Assembly: GCA_030789695.1 (NCBI GenBank)
Contig: CM061139.1
Location: 110,024,837 to 110,088,836, forward strand
DNA: 64,000 nucleotides
Direction: 5' to 3'
From: Scilla litardierei
Lineage: Eukaryota; Streptophyta; Magnoliopsida; Asparagales; Asparagaceae
The notes beneath the pieces were generated by a model. The model was not told the origin of the DNA and did no database searches. It saw only the letters and a program-made list of their open reading frames with translations. This document shows, piece after piece, positions 6,909-63,782 of the stretch. Positions within the stretch are counted from its first letter, which is position 1; every line of letters starts with the position of its first letter. Made by a program: the position numbers and the translations under genes.

Positions 6909-7658
6909 TGTAATGCCCTACTAGCTACTGCACAAGTACTAGAGGGGGGGTGAATAGTACTTTAAAATAATAAGGAGTATAATTCCAAATTAAATTGCAA
7001 ACAACTACCAAATCAATTTGCGGAAGCTTAAATTGAATGACAACACAAAATTAACAATGCAAACAAATGATGTTAATGGGTTCGGATCCACCCAAGTCTC
7101 CCCGACTTGTTCCCGGTGATCCTACGTCCCAACCACCCGGATCCCCTCCGGATACTTAGGTTAGAAACCCTAACCTAAGATTTCCACTATGAATATCTTG
7201 TGAAAAACCTTCACAAGATCAAATCATACATGCAATAGCAAACGTGAATCCCACAACCCGGGATCACAACCTTCTCTCACAACCGAGAGAATCACAAAGC
7301 AATATTAAAGAATTTAATATGAAATAAACAATCTTACCACAAAATCCTATACCTTGAGTTTTTCTTACCCAAATGGTGAAATGAAGGATTTGAGGAAGAT
7401 GAAGTCACCAAGACCTAGCACCAAGGAAATGACCAGCAATCGGTGCCTAGGGATGATTTGGAGACTTGGATCAAGCAATAGCTTGAAGAGCTCACCAAGA
7501 ACAACCTTCTCTCTAGATGGATTCTAGATCTAGAAATGAGAGAGAATGTGTTTCTTGTGAGGAAGAGAGCTTTTGATTTGAGTGAGAATGGCTATCTCTT
7601 TAGAACTCAATGAATCTCTTAATGACAGCTCTAACCTGGATAGAAATGACCTAGGTTC

Positions 7659-7670
7659 GTATTTATAGGG
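7659..7670 (-). promoter_or_regulatory. LTR TATA box of Sire-1
   Basis: The minus strand reads CCCTATAAATAC. It lies 52 bp downstream, in transcription direction, of the nearest hairpin unit. Confidence 0.6.
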
Positions 7671-7721
7671 TCCCATAAAAACAAGTTAGGTCATTCTCCA
7701 ACGGATAGAAATCTGTGAGAA

Positions 7722-8259
7722 TTAGTCGGTCAAAGAACAATCACTGACCGACTAGTTCATCAACTAGTCGGTCAGTCAAACAGCATGGACCGACTAAGAG
7801 TAGATCTGAGAAGAGATAGAATTTCAGACCTAGAAATCTAGTCGGTCCAAGAAGACTTTCTGACCGACTAGTTTCACAACTAGTCGGTCAGTCAGTGAAC
7901 GTAGACCGACTAAGAGCAAAAAGAATTAGTCTGAGTACAAAGTGACTTAGTCGGTCCAAGAACAAAAGTTGACCGACTAAATTGTCAACTAGTCGGTCAC
8001 CAAACGTTCTTAGACCGACTAACGATAAACAGTAGCTTAGGAGAATTTTAGCATGAACAGTAAGTCACAACTAGTCGGTCAAAGAAGCATCACTGACCGA
8101 CTAGTTCACAAACTAGTCGGTCGGTGAGTCAACGTAGACCGACTAACTGTAAACAGTAAAGTCCAAGAAATTAAGGAATCAAACTAGTCGGTCCAAGAAC
8201 AGTTGCCGACCGACTAGATCACCATCTAGTCGGTCAGTACTTGTTCTTGTACCAACTAA
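7722..8259. repeat. Five hairpin units in U3 of the Sire-1 LTR
   Basis: Units at 7722-7797, 7838-7913, 7946-8022, 8071-8146 and 8184-8259 are each ~76 bp. Each reads TAGTCGGTC, ~14-18 nt, GACCGACTA, ~7 nt, TAGTCGGTC, ~14-18 nt, GACCGACTA (the last half-site of unit 5 is degenerate). Half-sites are nearly invariant while spacers vary. The array lies just upstream of the TATA box. Confidence 0.9.
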
Positions 8260-16985: not shown

Positions 16986-17553
16986 TAATCGGTCTAAGAA
17001 GGATCATCAACCGACTAGATTGACAACTAGTCGGTCAGAGAACCTTCTTGGACCGACTAGATGGTTGACAGAGAAGTTGGTGAAATCTGGGTAAGAACTA
17101 GTCGGTCTAAGAAGGATCATCAACCGACTAGATTGACAACTAGTCGGTCAGTGAACCTTCTTGGACCGACTAGATTGGCTTTTAAAGCATTAACCTTCCT
17201 TCTTGAACCAACTAACTGGTCAACAGTACAAAGGTCGAATTTCACAAGGAAAACTAGTCGGTCTGAGAAGAAACACCAACCGACTAGATCGTCATTTAGT
17301 CTGTCGGTGAGCCTTCTTGGACCGACTAATTGGTCAACAAATTGTCTTCAATTGATTAGGATAACTAGTCGGTCTGAGTAGGATTTCCAACCGACTAGAT
17401 CGTCATCTAGTCGGTCGGTGAACCTTCTTGGACCAACTAATTGACCAACAGTGAATGGGCTGAATCAAGTAAGGATATCTAGTCGGTTCAAGAAGGATTT
17501 CCAACCGATTAGATCGTCATCTAGTCGGTTGGTTCTTCTTCTTGAACCAACTA
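16986..17553. repeat. Five hairpin units in the Sire-4 3' LTR
   Basis: Units start at about 16986, 17098, 17253, 17364 and 17479. Each is ~75 bp with the order TAGTCGGTC, ACCGACTAG, CTAGTCGGT, GACCGACTA. Outer spacers also pair (AAGAAGG against CCTTCTT), so each unit could fold into one long hairpin. Confidence 0.88.
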
Positions 17554-50941: not shown

Positions 50942-53075
50942 TATAGTGACCCTGTGCTATGAGGAATAAACACTAGAGGGGGGTGAATAGTGTTTTATAA
51001 AATTATAAGGAATTTACACCAAATAAAACCCTACTTAACCAACAAATGCGGAATGTAATAAATGAACAACAACCCAAGTAAGAAAGCAATGCAAACAAGC
51101 AATCTACCCTGGTTCGGTGCCACCCAAGTCTCCCCGACTTGTTATCGGTGCCCTACTCCAGCAACACCCGGATCCCATCCAGATACTCTAGCAAACCGCT
51201 AGAGATTTCCTTTAGCCCACTTGTGAAAAACCTCCAACAAGTGCAATCGACCTACAATCGATGTCCATGTATCCCACAACCCGGGAACACACAAAGTCCT
51301 TAATCCCACAACTTGGGACTAAGCCCACTCTCACAAACCGAGAGCAAAACTAAATCTTGACTCCCACAACTTGGGATCAAGCCAATCCTCTCACCACCGT
51401 GAGTATACAACAATTAAGAAGTATAAAGAATGAAATATAAAACTTCTTACCACAAAATCCTATGCCTTGAAAAATACTTACCAATTTAGGGCAAGAATGG
51501 ATTTTGGGGAAGATGAGATCACCAAACCCTAGCTCCACCAAGATGAGCAGCAATAGATGGCTAGGGAGGAGTTGGTGACTTGGATTCAAGCTTTTAGCTT
51601 GAGAAGCTCACAAGGAATGAGAATCTCTCTTGAGGAATTGGGCTCAAAGAGTAAGGGAGAGATTCTTGTGAGATGAGAGAGCTTGGAATAGGAGTTGAAT
51701 GGCTCTCTTCAAAGAAGTGAACATGTCTCTAATTTCAGCCTTGGATCCCTAGTTAGAAGCACACAAACTTATATAGGGAAGAGAGAAAACGGTCACAAAA
51801 TTCGTGGCATTAAATGCCCCAACGGCTCTATTCTGAAGCTGCTTAATCGGTCTAAGAAGGATCATCAACCGACTAGATTGACAACTAGTCGGTAAGAGAA
51901 CCTTCTTGGACCGACTAGATGGTTGACAGAGAAGTTGGTGAAATCTGGGTAAGAACTAGTCGGTCTAAGAAGGATCATCAACCGACTAGATTGACAACTA
52001 GTCGGTCAGTGAACCTTCTTGGACCGACTAGATTGGCTTTTAATGCATTAACCATCCTTCTTGAACCAACTAACTGGTCAACAGTACAAAGGTCGAATTT
52101 CACAAGGAAAACTAGTCGGTCTGAGAAGAAACACCAACCGACTAGATCGTCATTTAGTCGATCGGTGAGCCTTCTTGGACCGACTAATTGGTCAACGAAT
52201 TGTCTTCAATTGATTATGATAACTAGTCGGTCTGAGTAGGATTTCCAACCGACTAGATCGTCATCTAGTCGGTCGGTGAACCTTCTTGGACCAACTAATT
52301 GACCAACAGTGAATGGGCTGAATCAAGCAAGGATATCTAGTCGGTTCAAGAAGGATTCCCAACCGATTAGATCGTCATCTAGTCAGTTGGTTCTTCTTCT
52401 TGAACCAACTAAGATGCATATGAATCCGTGAAATGAAACGGTAGGCTACGGGAAAGTTTCTAATGGCTTCTAAGGCAATCCTAGAGATACGATATGAAAG
52501 ATATGAAGATTTCTAGGCAAGTACTACTCAAGGCTTAACATTCTACTAAACCGAAGCTAGAAGACAATATAAATAACATGACGAACCGTCTTCGAAGCTT
52601 CAACATGGAGAATCCGAATCGCTTGACTTCAAGAATACTCCTTGAGCTTCAACAAAGCTCCAGGCACCACGATCACGCGTTCTGAGGAAGTCTTGGGACG
52701 TCGCTTGAGATGAACAAATTACTTTGGCGACGATCTCCATAAAACTTCATAGTCTTGAGTCTTTTAGTTGAATGACTTGAACGTCATAGTCTTCGAAGCT
52801 TTTGACTCATCCATTCCTTTCTTCTCTTTGGATTGAATCACCATTCATTTGTTGATGTCATTGGCTTGATGATTGAGGTAGACATTGAATTCTTCAAGCC
52901 AATGCTTCACTTTTGTTGATCTACCAAGTCCTCCACTTGAATCAACACGTGTAGTCACTTTTGATCTTCTTGAATCTAATTGGTGACTTTGTAGCTAACT
53001 GTAATCACAAGAGTTAGTCACAATGATTTGTGTTTGATCATCATCAAAATCAAGGTGGAGAGTCCAATACTCAAC
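50942..53075 (-). repeat. 5' LTR of Sire-4 (2134 bp)
   Basis: In plus orientation it starts TATAGTGACCC (TG to TA relative to the other LTR) next to a PBS that reads TTAGTATCAGAGC on the minus strand (50926-50941), and ends ACTCAACA. Five hairpin units lie at ~51848-52415 and a TATA box at 51769-51776. The target duplication ATAAG follows. Confidence 0.93.
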
Positions 53076-57871: not shown

Positions 57872-58221
57872 TGAGTATACACCCAAAGAACGGTTGTAGT
57901 TTTACCGCAAGCGCACGGTGTAGCGACGAGCGGGATATCGAACACAGGGAGGACGAATGACCGTGCTTGCTCCTAATCAACCTGGCTACTTAAGAGAGAA
58001 ATTTGCCTTTGGCGATCCTGTCACAATCGTCAGACAAAACGTGCAGAAATATCAAATCAAATAAAGAACGTCTAGGGAATGGGGAATCCCCGCTACTCAC
58101 CGTATTTCATAAATGTGGTTCGTCGGTATCAAAATTGCTTGAATAAGAATTTGGATGAACTAGTTGCAACTGAATGTAGAACCAAGCTCACGCTCTCGCG
58201 CTGTTGCCGGTCTATAGCTAT

Positions 58222-58520
58222 CCTAGGTTTGGATCCAATCTCTTGCAAACCCTAACCTAGGAAAGCTAGCATTAGGATCAACATCATCGTCCAATCGCGC
58301 ACCGAGTCCAATCTCTTGCAAACTCGGTCCCCGATCTAGATTGTGATAGTTCCTACCCGTCCAATCTCTTGCAAACGAGTATCGGCATGGAATTGCAACC
58401 GGAAATCCTAGTATCGGTCCAATCTCTTGCAAACCGATACTTCGAAAATCCGATTCCAACCCAATTCGGATTTCTAGGGCTTCCTATCAAATTGGGATCC
58501 AATCTCTTGCAAATCCCAAT
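58222..58520 (-). ncRNA. Array of five hairpins with identical 14-nt loop and variable stems (Gyp-8 LTR)
   Basis: CCAATCTCTTGCAA (loop on the minus strand TTGCAAGAGATTGG) occurs at 58235-58248, 58308-58321, 58361-58374, 58419-58432 and 58499-58512. Each copy is flanked by inverted arms of unrelated sequence. Copy 5: ATTGGGAT/ATCCCAAT, 8 of 8. Copy 4: AGTATCGGT/ACCGATACT, 9 of 9. Copy 2: ACCGAGT/ACTCGGT, 7 of 7. Copy 3: TACCCGT/ACGAGTA, 6 of 7. Copy 1: 11 of 13 pairs. A sixth hairpin (58446-58473) has a 7-bp stem and a 14-nt loop of different sequence. The array lies downstream of the TATA box, so it should be transcribed. Calling it RNA structure is inference. Confidence 0.6.
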
Positions 58521-58912
58521 CGATATGAATACCTAGCCATCCGTAGTAAATTGATCACAATCTAATCCCTAATTATTAATTCTAGCACAATTTCTACCAA
58601 TTCATCACAAATATGAAAGTGGGTTTGTAGGGTTCATCCCCACGCCCCAGGACGTGGAGACTACTCACAATCCATAGCAAGATCACAAAAATAATCAATG
58701 AAATAAGCAATAGAATTCATCACAATATTGAGATAAGCAATAAAAATAGAATTTTTAAGGAAAAGAGATGCAAACCAATGGAGTTCTTCAATTGTTCCAA
58801 CAAAAATCACAAACTTGTCTCTTCTCCAATCACAAGAATAAAGCTAAAAACTAATCTAAAAAGCTGCAAAAAATCTAAGAGAGAGGCTCTCCAAACTAGG
58901 GTAAAAACAGGG

Positions 58913-58921
58913 CTTAAATAG
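58913..58921 (-). promoter_or_regulatory. LTR TATA-like box of Gyp-8
   Basis: The minus strand reads GGGCTATTTAAGCCC, itself nearly palindromic. It lies ~79 bp downstream of the CGGCCG palindrome array. Confidence 0.45.
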
Positions 58922-58999
58922 CCCTCAAAATCGTCCAACGTGACCAAAATACCCCTGCGCAGCCTGTTTTCCGCAGTTTTCGCTACAGGCAGCGCATCG

Positions 59000-59381
59000 C
59001 ACTCGGCCGAGTGACAAAAGTCGCTCGGCCGAGTGAAGACCCTGTCATTTTCCAGTAAGTCGGGGGCTTCAGGGGTCTTCAGTTCGGGGGCGGCTCGGCC
59101 GAGTGAGTTGTCGTCACTCGGCCGATGGCTTCAAGGCACTCGGGCGGACGTAATAATCCACTCGGCCGAGTGGGTCTTCTGAAGCTCAGGCAGCCGAAAA
59201 ACAGTAACTTCGATGTTTTGGAAGGGCTTCGTCTGGGCGCCACTCGGGCGGACGCGATATCGTCACTCGGCCGATGTGGTCTTCGGTGCTCGGCCGAGTG
59301 CACCGGTAACTCGTGTCTGAACTGGTCGGCCGAGCAGTGTCTTGCTGGTCGGCCGAGTGGCTCCTCCACTCGGCCGAGTGG
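59000..59381. repeat. CACTCGGCCGAGTG palindrome array in U3 of Gyp-8
   Basis: Nine or more copies centred on TCGGCCGA occur, for example 59000-59013, 59022-59035, ~59094-59107, ~59124, ~59160-59173, ~59265, ~59288-59301, ~59323, ~59345 and ~59366-59379. Some are perfect 14-bp palindromes; others are half-degenerate. Confidence 0.88.
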
Positions 59382-59676
59382 GACACAAAGAATGCCCAAT
59401 CTGATTGTTTTGGCCTCCTCGTCGCTCTTGTGACGTCCATTCTTCTTCCGCTCCTCTCCAACAGCAAAATACCCCTCGGGGGAGGTCGTCGGTGACCGTC
59501 TAAAGTGAGCGCATCTCAAGATCACTCCAAATCGCGCCAAATCACCTGAAATGCGACAAAAACAACAAATCGTGAAAAGCATCGCAATATCGTCGATATA
59601 TCGTGAAAAACATGATTTGGGCGATCTAAATGGCATGCAAACATGCGGAAAAAAGGTGTAAAATGAGGAGTGATCA

Positions 59677-61638
59677 AAATCCCCCAAGCTTGCCTCTTAC
59701 TCGTCCTCGAGGAAGATAAGTAAAAGGCGAAACCGGTGGATTCGAAAAACGGCGAAAAGAAACGAAAAATGAAAACGAAGAAGAATGAAAACGAAATAGA
59801 ATAAAGTAAGAAAGAAAGAAGCGAAGAGGTAGGATGCTAGATCATTTCCTCAGGACGTGGGTTTCACTTACTCATATAGCATGCTCTGAATGAAAAATAC
59901 ATGTCAAAGAATTTTATTTTGATATCATAGTATAATAGTGCAAGTAGAAATAGAAAACCCACGAACAACGATATAATCATGAAAAACGGAATAATTTTAG
60001 AATTAGCATCGTCTGAAACATTTAAAGCGGTATACAAATCACAGATCACACACTTTTCAATTGAACGCTTTCTATCAGGAGTATAAGAGTATCACACTAT
60101 AGAATAGAGAGAATAGAAAAGTATGGATTTCATGAGATGAACGCTAGGCTTAGATTCCTGGATTTCGTAAAGCTAAAAACAATCTCATTGAGTGTAGAAT
60201 ATTACTTAGCCTAGGTCGTCGTGCAATGTCAAGTAGTCACTCTCTCACACATCAATGGATCCCCTCCCCCAAGCTTATCTATAAGCGTGGTGGCATAAAA
60301 AATATTTACATCCCCATTTTTATATACATATAGCTCCAAAAGCGATAAAAAGAAAGAAGGAAGGAAGAAAGTGAGATGGGATCTTTTATTGAGGATTTTT
60401 CCTCTTTTTCTCTTTTTTTTCTTTTTTTTTCTTTTGATATAGCATATATACAATGATCCCAACTCAAAGAGAGATAATGATATACAAGAATGTTTTTCTC
60501 TCTTTTATTTTTTTTATAGAATAAGAGACTTGGAGCTAGGAATGAATAGCGGGGGAAATGCCATAAAATAGAATCACTAAGGGGAGATTCACCAATGATT
60601 TTAAAAGTAGAGAAATGATGTTCAAGATTTGTGGAGAAAGAAATAAATATAACTCTCGGTTCACTCTATAGGACATGCACGACAACTTCAGCAGGGTAAT
60701 CTAATCTACTCAGTTTCGATCACAAAAAAGCTAACTAATCCAGATTTATCATAGCTAACATCATCCAATCATCCTGAAGTGAAGTGTACAATTCATGCAT
60801 ATAGAAGTGATATAGGAAAAGAAATCAGTACTCCAGATATAGGCATTCAATGCATGAATCTTGGTGCGTTTTCTGTGATAGCATACATATGAATATTCAG
60901 ACTCAGCTAATAATAAAATTTCATCCATTTTCATGTGGAAAAAGTGTGGGTTACTATTCTAAATGCAAAGCAAGTCATAGCATCTGATATCTGAAATAAA
61001 ACCTAAGACATAACAAATATAGCATGCATATAGAATAAGCTAAATCCAACGTCATCATCATCACAGAAAAGTCATCTCTAGCATGAGATGAAAAAGAAAT
61101 AAAGATAAAGGGAAAATAGAACTATTTACAATGCAGCACACAGAAAAATAAGAAAAACGTGATGCATGGTAAAATGAAAGAAAAATAATGAAAAATGAGT
61201 GCAAAAGTGAAAAACGGTGTGAAAAACTAAAAATAAAGGTGGTAAATCAAAAAGAACGTGAGAACTCACTCCCCCCAAGCTAAATCGCACAGTGTCCTCA
61301 ATGTGCAAAGTGTGGCACACTGAGAGACAAGAAATGTGAGGGGCAAGTGAGGATGCATGCATGGAAAAGTGAAAATAATAAAGAAAAATAAAGAAATGAA
61401 AATATGATGCGGACATGATGCATGCACGGATAGGAGTGATACAGATATATAGGTGGCACCAAAAACTCTCCCTCTCTCCCAAAAAAGATATATATAGATA
61501 TGATCAAAAATAGAATCCCAAAATAAGTGAGGGGAGGGGGTGGACAAAAGTGCAACAGGACCCAGCAGAAACGGGCAGCACAACGGCAAGAAGAAATGAT
61601 GGCATCAAAAGTGCCTAAGAAGGCGGTGCTGCGCCGTC
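59677..61638 (-). other. Gyp-8 non-coding region between ORF and LTR, with three polypurine tracts
   Basis: Minus-strand AGCTTGGGGG tracts occur at ~59681-59692 (next to the LTR), ~60264-60273 and ~61271-61280. The remainder is AT-rich with T- and A-runs. Short hydrophobic frames over it have no recognisable domain. Confidence 0.55.
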
Positions 61639-63782
61639 TCAATCCTGAGGCGGAGGTCGTGAGGGTGGTGCTGGCTGGACAGGCTGCTGAGCGTGGGTGG
61701 GTGTGGAAGTGGAAGCAGGTCTAGTGTGTGTGGAAGTGTGTGTGGGAACCTGCTGGGTGGGCGGGGGTACGCGTGGGAGACGCTCCAAGACCTGTGTAAG
61801 GCAGTAGTGGATCTGGGGGATCAGCTCGAAGCGTCTAGCCATCACAGAGACGGTGGAGGACAGGGTCCTAAGGTCACCTCTAAGACCACTCACCGCCAAC
61901 TCAATAGCACGTATGCTCTGCAATACAGTGTCGGGCGGGGGTGGTGCAGAGGGACGCACCGGTCGAGGCTGCGCAGGGCGAGACTGGCGTACGCGGGTGG
62001 AATATGTAATGGGCTCAGCAGGGAAGGGAACAAAAGGTGCCGCGCCTGGAAATGTGGGCCGGGCCTCAGTGTGAGGCCGGGGCGGGCGGTGAGAAGTGGA
62101 GGTGGCAGCAGCGAAAGAAGAGTGCAAAAGAGGCAGCGAGGCGGCCAGAGAGGTCGATGGCACAGAAGTGTGGACAGACGCCACGACGCTCTCAGAAAAT
62201 ACAGCAGGGGTGGAGACAGAGGTGACTACCGCTGGGGTGGAAGTGTGTGGACCAAAAGGCGCAATCCCAGCGGAGATCATGCTAGCCATGGTCTCCACGA
62301 CCGCGGTAAACGAGGGCTCTCCACTCTCAACAAAGGTCTGCGGGCGCTCGGGGAGTGCAGAGCAAAGAGGCTCGACGGACAGAGGGCCGGTGGTGGGAGT
62401 GGGAGTGGTGGTGACAGCCTCGGAAGTGGTGGGGGTGGGCTCAGCTAAGGTGCTCCCGACACCGACAGAGGTGTCAGGAGCGACGGAAACGTCAGGTATG
62501 GGCTGAGGGGCCACAGGGTCAACGGGCTCGGCAGCAGGCTCGGCAGGGTGTGCAACAGGGTCTACATGGGCAGCGGGGGCCTGCTCGGCCTCCTCGGCCT
62601 CGAGCACGTACGCAGCGGGGATGAGGACATCCATCACAGGGAGCCAGTCAACGTGGGCCGGTGCAATCTGGGTCCGAGCTGGGCTCGGGAGAATCATGTA
62701 GTCGGCACCGAAAGGGCCGTGCAACCAGACCCAGTGACGCTCACCATGCGGACGAAGCATCTTCATCCGGGCCATAACATCTATCGACAAAGAAGTGGGG
62801 CCTGGGACGCGTCGCAAGTCGTCGGGGAAGTCCTCGCCGGTCATAAGAGCAAGCAAGGTAATCAGGCCGCTGCAGCATATCGGTGAGCGAGCGCCCACCG
62901 ATACAATGATGCGGTCTAAAAACCATGCCGCGATATCGATCACGACGGCGGGGACAAGCTCATCTCCATCCCTAGATAGAGCTCTGGGACGTGTCATCAC
63001 GTAGAGCATGTGAAGCTCTGGCTTAGACATCGTGCCTGGCTCATATCTGGCCAAAAATGTCGTCGCCATAAGGCGCTGAGCAATGCGAAGGCAGGGGTGG
63101 ACGATGGCCGAGGCCTTGGCCCTACTAGGGTCAAAGGCAGCGTGGAGACCCGTGATACGTGCCCAGAAGGCACCGGCGTCGAAAGAGGGTGGGGGATATG
63201 GGTGGGGCCGTAACTGCGATCGGCTCCGGGGACAGCGGGCCACGAGAAAAACGCTCTCATCATATCGAGAGTGACCTGGCACTCTCGATCCATGAACCGA
63301 AACGAGCATCCCTCGTCGGTCCGGGCGATCGAACTCAAAACCTCAAGTGTCGGGCGGGTAAAAGTATCCGCCGACACCTGGAAAAAATCTCGCCAGCCCA
63401 CGTTGTCGTACAACGTGAGCATCCCCTCAAGTACCCCCAGGCGTCCTAGGTCAGCGAGGTGTGCAAACCTGGAGGGTACGATCGAGCGCTGGGAGATACG
63501 CTCGAAGACGGCGCGGTGTGCGTCGTCTCGGAACGTAATCCCGAGCGGCCCGACCAGCGCAGCCGGTGGTGGTGGTTGTGGGTCGGCAGGGAGAGGCTGT
63601 GCGGGCTGTGGGTGCACTGCAGGCTGTGCGGGGTGTGCGGGGCCTGCAGGCTGTGCTGGGTGGATGGCGTGTGTGGGGGAAGGAGGAGGAGACTCTTCCA
63701 CCTCGTGGGCGGGGCCGGCATCATCCGACCGCTTCCGCTTAGCGGAAGGTCTCCTCGTCTGCGGTCGTGTCCGGGGCGGCAT
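61639..63782 (-). pseudogene. ATHILA ORF-1-like protein gene of Gyp-8, one frameshift
   Basis: The ATG at 63782 opens MPPRTRPQTRRPSAKRKRS, a basic nuclear-type tail, then proline-rich linkers. A folded domain follows: SRFAHLADLGRLGVLEGMLTLYDNVGWRDFF, RPTLEVLSSI, CSFRFMDRECQVTLDMMRAFF. This is the style of the plant retrotransposon ORF1/ATHILA family (PF03078-like). Homology changes frame in a C/G-run region around 63185-63215 and continues (FDAGAFWARITG, SRAKASAIVHPCLR, SGLITLLALM) into a long Pro/Ser/Thr/Ala-rich tail ending RPPPQD at 61639. The function of this family is not known to me. The frameshift may be real or a homopolymer error. Confidence 0.65.

What the first reader, a model, noticed from the sequence alone, without database searches (positions are those of the whole stretch)
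58222..58520. Five hairpins share one exact 14-nt loop but have different, still-paired stems
Seen directly: CCAATCTCTTGCAA occurs five times, spaced 53-80 bp. Every copy is bracketed by inverted arms (7 to 13 bp, three perfect) whose sequences differ between copies. Simple tandem duplication would copy the stems, and drift would break them, so pairing kept alongside changed sequence points to selection on structure with a fixed loop. The array is downstream of the LTR TATA-like box, hence probably in the transcript. In the transcript sense the loop begins UUGCAA, which is self-complementary, as in retroviral kissing-loop dimerisation signals. A packaging, dimerisation or protein-binding array is therefore plausible, though this is inference. 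I do not know a described plant element with this feature.
Basis: partly seen in the sequence, partly recalled or inferred. Interest (0 to 1): 0.78.

Follow-up and report, generated by a model that had tools for sequence, protein, structure and literature searches.

The report
Five-hairpin RNA array in Athila LTR
The leader of a very abundant plant jumping gene of the Athila type carries five neighbouring RNA hairpins whose tips stay the same while their stems change letters in matched pairs, which points to a working RNA structure, possibly the handle by which the element packages its own RNA.

Summary
Five exact copies of the 14-mer lie in the leader part of an Athila-type Ty3/gypsy LTR (57872-59676, minus strand). 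All five have pairing arms, against 0 of 345 copies of the 10-mer core in unrelated loci. The host genome holds 167,774 exact copies. I compared 33 genomic arrays, 74-97% identical to this one. The motif is not an open loop but U-(UG bulge)-CAA-GAGA-UUG-G: a GAGA tetraloop on a 3-bp cap. The closing cap pair switches A-U to C-G in both letters together (127 and 38 of 169 cores, 1 broken); the switched form has 32,129 exact copies. On internal tree branches, changes in the first four stem pairs plus cap keep pairing 16 of 16 times; on tips 25 of 48. G.U exceeds A.C 97 to 26 cells, favouring structure in the sense RNA. Against: hairpins 5 and 1 alone show no shuffle excess; hairpin 3 is weak. 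The UUGCAA palindrome is not conserved, so the kissing-loop reading weakens. Best mechanism: a repeated Gag/nucleocapsid-binding packaging element (inferred, about 0.4). Function untested.

The parts
57872..59676 (-). LTR of an Athila-type Ty3/gypsy element, read as its 3' LTR: TGATCACT...TATACTCA, next to a purine tract (AAGCTTGGGGGATTT, about 59678-59692)
   Evidence: ends and purine tract read directly; Athila ORF-1 on the same strand; the other LTR is not in the next 4,964 bases (L226)
58914..58920 (-). TATA-like box TATTTAA, upstream of the array in transcript sense
   Evidence: TATA-like motif within 420 nt upstream in 32 of 33 related arrays
58467..58543 (-). hairpin 5 (first in transcript); core 58499-58512
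   Evidence: 26 pairs in the fold; formed in 32 of 34 arrays
58388..58463 (-). hairpin 4; core 58419-58432
   Evidence: 26 pairs in the fold; formed in 33 of 34 arrays
58355..58380 (-). hairpin 3; core 58361-58374; the weakest
   Evidence: 6 pairs in the 58200-58545 fold, absent from larger folds; formed in 23 of 34 arrays; covaries
58274..58354 (-). hairpin 2; core 58308-58321; in larger folds only 58293-58336
   Evidence: 13 or 26 pairs by context; formed in 33 of 34 arrays
58205..58271 (-). hairpin 1; core 58235-58248; 58215-58268 in shorter folds
   Evidence: 18 or 21 pairs by context; formed in 34 of 34 arrays
61639..63309 (-). ORF of 556 aa with an ATHILA ORF-1 match, presumed gag of the same element
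   Evidence: PF03078, E 1.6e-6, 27.7 bits against cut-off 20.2; no protein relative at E <= 0.001

Best explanation
The array is a cis-acting RNA element in the leader (transcribed LTR part) of an abundant Athila-type LTR retrotransposon family. Five hairpins in tandem present the same tip: a closing U-A and U.G, a two-base UG bulge, a 3-bp cap and a GAGA tetraloop. Shown by comparison: the tip and its pairing are conserved between diverged lineages while stem letters change in matched pairs, and the evidence points to the sense RNA. Inferred: the tips are repeated docking sites for the element's own Gag/nucleocapsid, the bulge and purine loop being the contact and the stems only holders that set spacing, so that full-length RNA is picked out and nucleates particle assembly. 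I put a conserved sense-strand RNA structure at about 0.93 and the packaging step at about 0.4; the confidence below is for the packaging mechanism.
For: Cap pair 6-11 is A-U 127, C-G 38, U.G 3, A.C 1 of 169 cores; the C-G form has 32,129 exact genome copies, control 6. Internal branches keep pairing 16 of 16 (first four arm pairs + cap) against 25 of 48 on tips; unpaired UG and GAGA letters change 0 times on internal branches and 11 times on tips. Ten double changes, all internal, against 0-2 when partners are slid. G.U 97 against A.C 26 cells. Sense fold lower than antisense in 34 of 34 arrays. TATA-like box upstream in 32 of 33. Cores 95.3% identical, arms 79.3%, spacers 85.1%. Family success: 167,774 exact cores. 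Leader stem-loops with looped purines are packaging sites in MMTV (abstract of PMC8096270), and dispersed stem-loops sharing a loop motif act so in HBV (passages of PMC7612645).
Against: No Gag-binding or packaging data. Hairpins 5 and 1 alone show no excess of pairing over shuffles. With seven or nine arm pairs the internal/tip contrast is weaker (28 of 39 against 26 of 57, p 0.009; 34 of 51 against 31 of 64, p 0.04). All five hairpins are predicted to form together in only 20 of 34 arrays. In the C-G variant energy prefers another tip fold (P 0.76). G.U against A.C by pair positions is 25 to 15, p 0.15, and antisense z is the lower one in 7 of 34 arrays. Arrays come from one contig end and each holds an exact core. 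Nothing here separates Gag from a host protein.
Confidence: 0.4

Rival explanations
1. The hairpins bind a host RNA-binding protein or act on translation or RNA fate (ribosome shunt or internal entry, stability, export) rather than on Gag.
For: The inferred leader part (58885-57872) is 1,014 nt with 10 AUGs and strong hairpins, awkward for scanning ribosomes; conserved unpaired tip letters would suit any protein.
Against: Nothing direct; five repeats of one tip on free stems suit multivalent binding more than a shunt, which needs one large structure (inference, recalled).
Confidence: 0.3
2. Dimerisation: the palindrome UUGCAA in the tips makes loop-loop kisses between two RNAs, as in retroviral dimer initiation sites.
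For: UUGCAA is self-complementary; free 16-mers pair at -7.1 kcal/mol; the 4-nt UGCA survives in the C-G variant.
Against: The palindrome is altered in at least 41 of 169 cores, in step with the cap partner, with three such double changes on internal branches, two in hairpin 1 and one in hairpin 2.
Confidence: 0.1
3. DNA-level element: an array of binding sites for a DNA-binding protein (as the su(Hw) sites in the Drosophila gypsy leader, recalled), the dyad arms being secondary.
For: Identical motif at fixed spacing downstream of a TATA-like box; it contains CCAAT on the plus strand.
Against: G.U over A.C in sense 97 to 26 cells, sense folds lower in 34 of 34, and the matched change inside the motif are not expected for a DNA site.
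Confidence: 0.08
4. Mutation without selection: template switching or snap-back copying during reverse transcription keeps re-making paired stems around a common tip.
For: Arms differ between lineages more than spacers do (79.3% against 85.1% identity) while pairing.
Against: Single G.U steps and single-pair compensations on internal branches, 16 of 16 kept against 25 of 48 on tips, and 0 internal changes at unpaired tip letters look like selection rather than block copying.
Confidence: 0.06
5. Small-RNA source or decoy: the hairpins are precursors cut by Dicer-like enzymes.
For: Four stems of 13-26 pairs; weak sub-threshold Rfam matches, four of the six to miRNA families and overlapping the array or U3.
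Against: No Rfam match at gathering score; the tip is conserved and the arms are not, the reverse of a miRNA precursor.
Confidence: 0.04

Closest known systems
Retroviral leader packaging signals, e.g. [quoted passage not shown] abstract and section list seen)
   Same: Stem-loop in the transcribed leader; unpaired purines at the tip; reverse-transcribing element
   Different: Here five repeats of one tip with changing stems; plant Ty3/gypsy element; Gag binding not tested
Dispersed stem-loop packaging signals (HBV -RGAG- loops, PMC7612645, passages seen; enterovirus and STNV papers, start of abstract in the listing only)
   Same: Several hairpins share a tip motif while their stems differ
   Different: Here they are clustered within about 340 nt; the RGAG form is not conserved, since position 6 is C or U in 41 of 169 cores
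BARE plant retrotransposon dimerisation and packaging signals (PMC3735527, passages seen)
   Same: Plant LTR retrotransposon said to have conserved dimerisation and packaging signals
   Different: Ty1/copia-type (recalled); the words hairpin and stem-loop occur 0 times in that text
Ty1/Ty3 leader cis-elements (PMC4974528, passages seen)
   Same: LTR retrotransposon cis-acting RNA near the 5' end; Ty3 is also Metaviridae
   Different: No repeated-tip array is described in the passages seen; the Ty3 RNA structure was called uncharacterised in 2016
su(Hw) insulator array in the Drosophila gypsy leader (recalled)
   Same: Repeated short site in the leader of a Metaviridae element
   Different: DNA-binding sites without covarying stems (recalled)

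Membership tests
Athila-type Ty3/gypsy LTR retrotransposon | Athila ORF-1/gag protein | tested here: met
   PF03078 above its cut-off, E 1.6e-6
Athila-type Ty3/gypsy LTR retrotransposon | TG...CA LTR next to a polypurine tract | tested here: met
   TGATCACT...TATACTCA and AAGCTTGGGGGA read directly
Athila-type Ty3/gypsy LTR retrotransposon | Ty3/gypsy-order pol in the same element | tested here: not met
   no ORF of 150 aa or more listed between 59688 and 61638; this copy seems to lack pol, so lineage rests on gag and LTR
Athila-type Ty3/gypsy LTR retrotransposon | matching 5' LTR and primer binding site | tested here: inconclusive
   window ends inside the element; the next 4,964 bases (L226) hold no LTR match beyond 35 nt
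Conserved RNA structure | compensatory changes between related copies | tested here: met
   hairpins 5 and 1 alone show no shuffle excess
Conserved RNA structure | strand preference for G.U over A.C | tested here: met
   97 to 26 cells; by pair positions 25 to 15, p 0.15
Retroviral-type packaging signal | lies in the transcribed leader | tested here: inconclusive
   downstream of a TATA-like box; transcript not seen
Retroviral-type packaging signal | binds Gag and raises packaging | not testable with these tools
   needs protein and particles
Retroviral kissing-loop dimerisation site | conserved palindromic apical loop | tested here: not met
   UUGCAA altered in at least 41 of 169 cores
Dispersed stem-loop packaging signals | shared tip motif on differing stems | tested here: met
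miRNA precursor | conserved arm sequence or an Rfam match | tested here: not met
   0 Rfam matches at gathering score; arms 79.3% against cores 95.3% identical
Simple tandem repeat | alignable unit beyond the motif | tested here: not met
   self-matches inside the array are 17-32 nt round the core; 3-10 of 16 arm letters identical, most between hairpins 1 and 5

The most novel reading that the evidence does not exclude
A polyvalent packaging code in a plant Metaviridae leader: five covarying hairpins sharing one UG-bulge, GAGA-tetraloop tip nucleate Gag assembly, let family members (including copies without pol) outcompete other RNAs for particles, and so help explain the very high copy number.
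Probability: 0.3. Interest if true: 0.8.

Novelty: new variant of a known kind. Interest (0 to 1): 0.62.

Why it matters
Packaging signals of LTR retrotransposons are poorly defined: a 2016 review says the Ty3 RNA structure was uncharacterised and that sequences important for packaging had not been precisely defined (passages of PMC4974528). This array offers a small, testable element with a conserved tip, natural compensatory variants (A-U and C-G caps) and 167,774 exact core copies in one genome. It makes the questions of what selects the RNA of such elements, and how copies without pol spread, directly testable.

Tried and rejected
Relatives outside the genome: in viral contigs the two-copy 14-mer, the gag ORF, the purine-tract junction and a U5 pattern gave no relative, and the 16-mer and a shorter two-copy pattern gave only chance-like places without arms. 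The covariance model scored at most 26.4 bits on the 29 loci against 43.5-48.6 for the window's five. Gag had no protein relative at E <= 0.001 among the candidates scored. The named relatives listed for a copia protein of the window are flowering plants (120 of 7988 listed). Rfam gave nothing at gathering score. All ten paper searches (open-licence PMC only) showed no description of this array in their listings. Within the window alone the wobble count did not decide the strand (14 G.U, 10 A.C). The window-wide fold scan has several places with stronger z, so folding energy alone is not the argument. A decoy for ribosome-inactivating proteins (GAGA as in the sarcin-ricin loop, recalled) was considered and left as untested speculation.

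Limits: the 33 arrays are all those in the first 100 places listed of 167,774, all within the first 2.6 Mb of contig C1, and each holds at least one exact core, which undercounts core changes. One core of 170 was dropped for a gap. The internal/tip test was run for five stem lengths and all are given. Genome-wide single-mutant counts were not obtained.

Full report
What is there. CCAATCTCTTGCAA occurs five times between 58235 and 58512 and nowhere else exactly in the window. The strand that matters is minus. There the LTR runs from 59676 to 57872 after a polypurine-like tract, with one TATTTAA at 58920. An Athila ORF-1 match lies on the same strand at 63309-61639. No ORF of 150 aa or more is listed between 59688 and 61638, so this copy looks non-autonomous or deleted. 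The named relatives listed for a copia protein of the window are flowering plants. The host genome is 3.68 Gb and the window is C10:110024837-110088836.

More than chance. Of the first nine arm pairs 8, 8, 7, 9 and 9 can form; 7 or more of 9 occurs at 50 of 1770 LTR positions. Elsewhere the motif has no arms: of 28 testable copies of the 14-mer in viral contigs 0 have a run of 7 pairs; of 345 testable copies of the 10-mer core in 173 loci 0 have a run of 7, 0 have 10 of 12 and 10 have 8 of 12. With only the spacers shuffled and the five cores kept, 0 of 300 shuffles fold as well and none caps more than two cores, against five observed. Between the five hairpins of the window 41 of 45 cells pair, 8 of 9 pairs have a change on both sides, and 0 of 500 shuffles reach the covariation score of 0.911.

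The loop is a small structure. Folding puts U1.G14, a two-base UG bulge, C4-G13, A5-U12, A6-U11 and a GAGA tetraloop at each tip, with cap probabilities near 0.6 where the hairpin forms. Family data test this. I took the 33 arrays that make up the first 100 listed places of 167,774, all on contig C1. All 33 align to the window's array, at 74-97% identity. In 169 of 170 cores examined, pair 6-11 is A-U 127, C-G 38, U.G 3 and A.C 1; no core has C6 with U11 or A6 with G11. The C-G form has 32,129 exact copies genome-wide, control 6. Genome-wide counts of the single mutants were asked for and never answered. Against this, in the C-G variant energy prefers another tip fold with C4-G11 and a 6-nt loop (P 0.76), and the median cap probability of hairpin 2, where that form is common, is 0.23. 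So that tip may switch between two forms.

Selection on pairing. A tree was made from 271 columns outside the 32-nt hairpin centres. Counting changes that start from a paired state at the first four arm pairs and three cap pairs, internal branches keep pairing 16 of 16 times and tips 25 of 48 times (one-sided Fisher p 0.0002). With five arm pairs it is 21 of 23 and 26 of 52; with six, 26 of 31 and 26 of 55; with seven, 28 of 39 and 26 of 57 (p 0.009); with nine, 34 of 51 and 31 of 64 (p 0.04). Internal branches stand mostly for lineages that were still active, tips mostly for decay of single copies (inference). Ten double changes occur, all internal, against 0 to 2 when partners are slid by 1 to 3. 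The unpaired UG and GAGA letters have 0 internal and 11 tip changes. By shuffling, hairpins 4, 3 and 2 exceed all 500 shuffles in cells paired and in double changes; hairpins 5 and 1 exceed neither maximum. Shuffles do not correct for relatedness; the tree counts do so in part.

Which strand and which molecule. In arm pairs 1-7 and the cap, G.U outnumbers A.C in sense 97 to 26 cells, with 50 other mismatches. A DNA dyad would treat G.T and A.C alike, and deamination acts on both strands. Counted by pair positions it is 25 to 15, p 0.15, and cells share ancestry. The sense fold has the lower energy in 34 of 34 arrays; its z is the lower one in 27 of 34 (means -6.70 and -5.26). A TATA-like box lies within 420 nt upstream in 32 of 33 relatives. 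The selected object is therefore most likely the sense RNA of the leader.

Stems change fast. Mean pairwise identity is 95.3% in cores, 79.3% in the nine arm letters each side, 85.1% in spacers and 85.2% outside. Stems thus vary more than their surroundings while pairing is largely kept. The core figure is helped by choosing arrays with an exact core. This fits stems as mere holders; template switching at hairpins may add to it.

Mechanism. A repeated identical tip with unpaired UG and GAGA on stems free to vary, in a retroelement leader, is what a polyvalent docking site for Gag/NC would look like. Retroviral purine loops (abstract) and dispersed stem-loop packaging signals are comparable. 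This is inference, and a host protein or a translational role fits nearly as well (10 AUGs in the inferred leader). Kissing through UUGCAA is weakened because its last letter changes together with its cap partner. The HBV-type RGAG motif is likewise not conserved.

Weak points. Hairpin 3 is predicted to form in 23 of 34 arrays, and all five together in 20 of 34. All arrays come from the first 2.6 Mb of one contig. Transcript start and ends are inferred. No source names the plant. Scale, by extrapolation only: the 33 arrays hold 100 exact cores (105 less the window's five), about 3 each, so 167,774 copies suggest some 55,000 LTRs.

Noticed in passing
59002-59378: The upstream (U3) part of the same LTR holds six exact CTCGGCCGAG palindromes, three of them as CACTCGGCCGAGTG.
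   Followed up: no
57872-63309: The element has an Athila ORF-1 but no pol ORF of 150 aa or more between that ORF and the LTR, so it looks like a gag-only, non-autonomous or deleted copy.
   Followed up: partly
52023-52421: Tandem units spaced 111-114 bp with ACTAGTCGGT / ACCGACTAG motifs.
   Followed up: no
17251-17550, 7651-8250, 901-1200: Very strong predicted folding on both strands (z about -9 to -15), as long DNA inverted repeats give.
   Followed up: no
L211, array region: A run of more than 40 G lies in the hairpin-2 arm of this copy, perhaps an assembly artefact.
   Followed up: no
G000, first 100 places on C1: Several arrays lie about 5-11 kb apart in the same orientation, as pairs of LTRs of one element would; pairs were not dated.
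   Followed up: no
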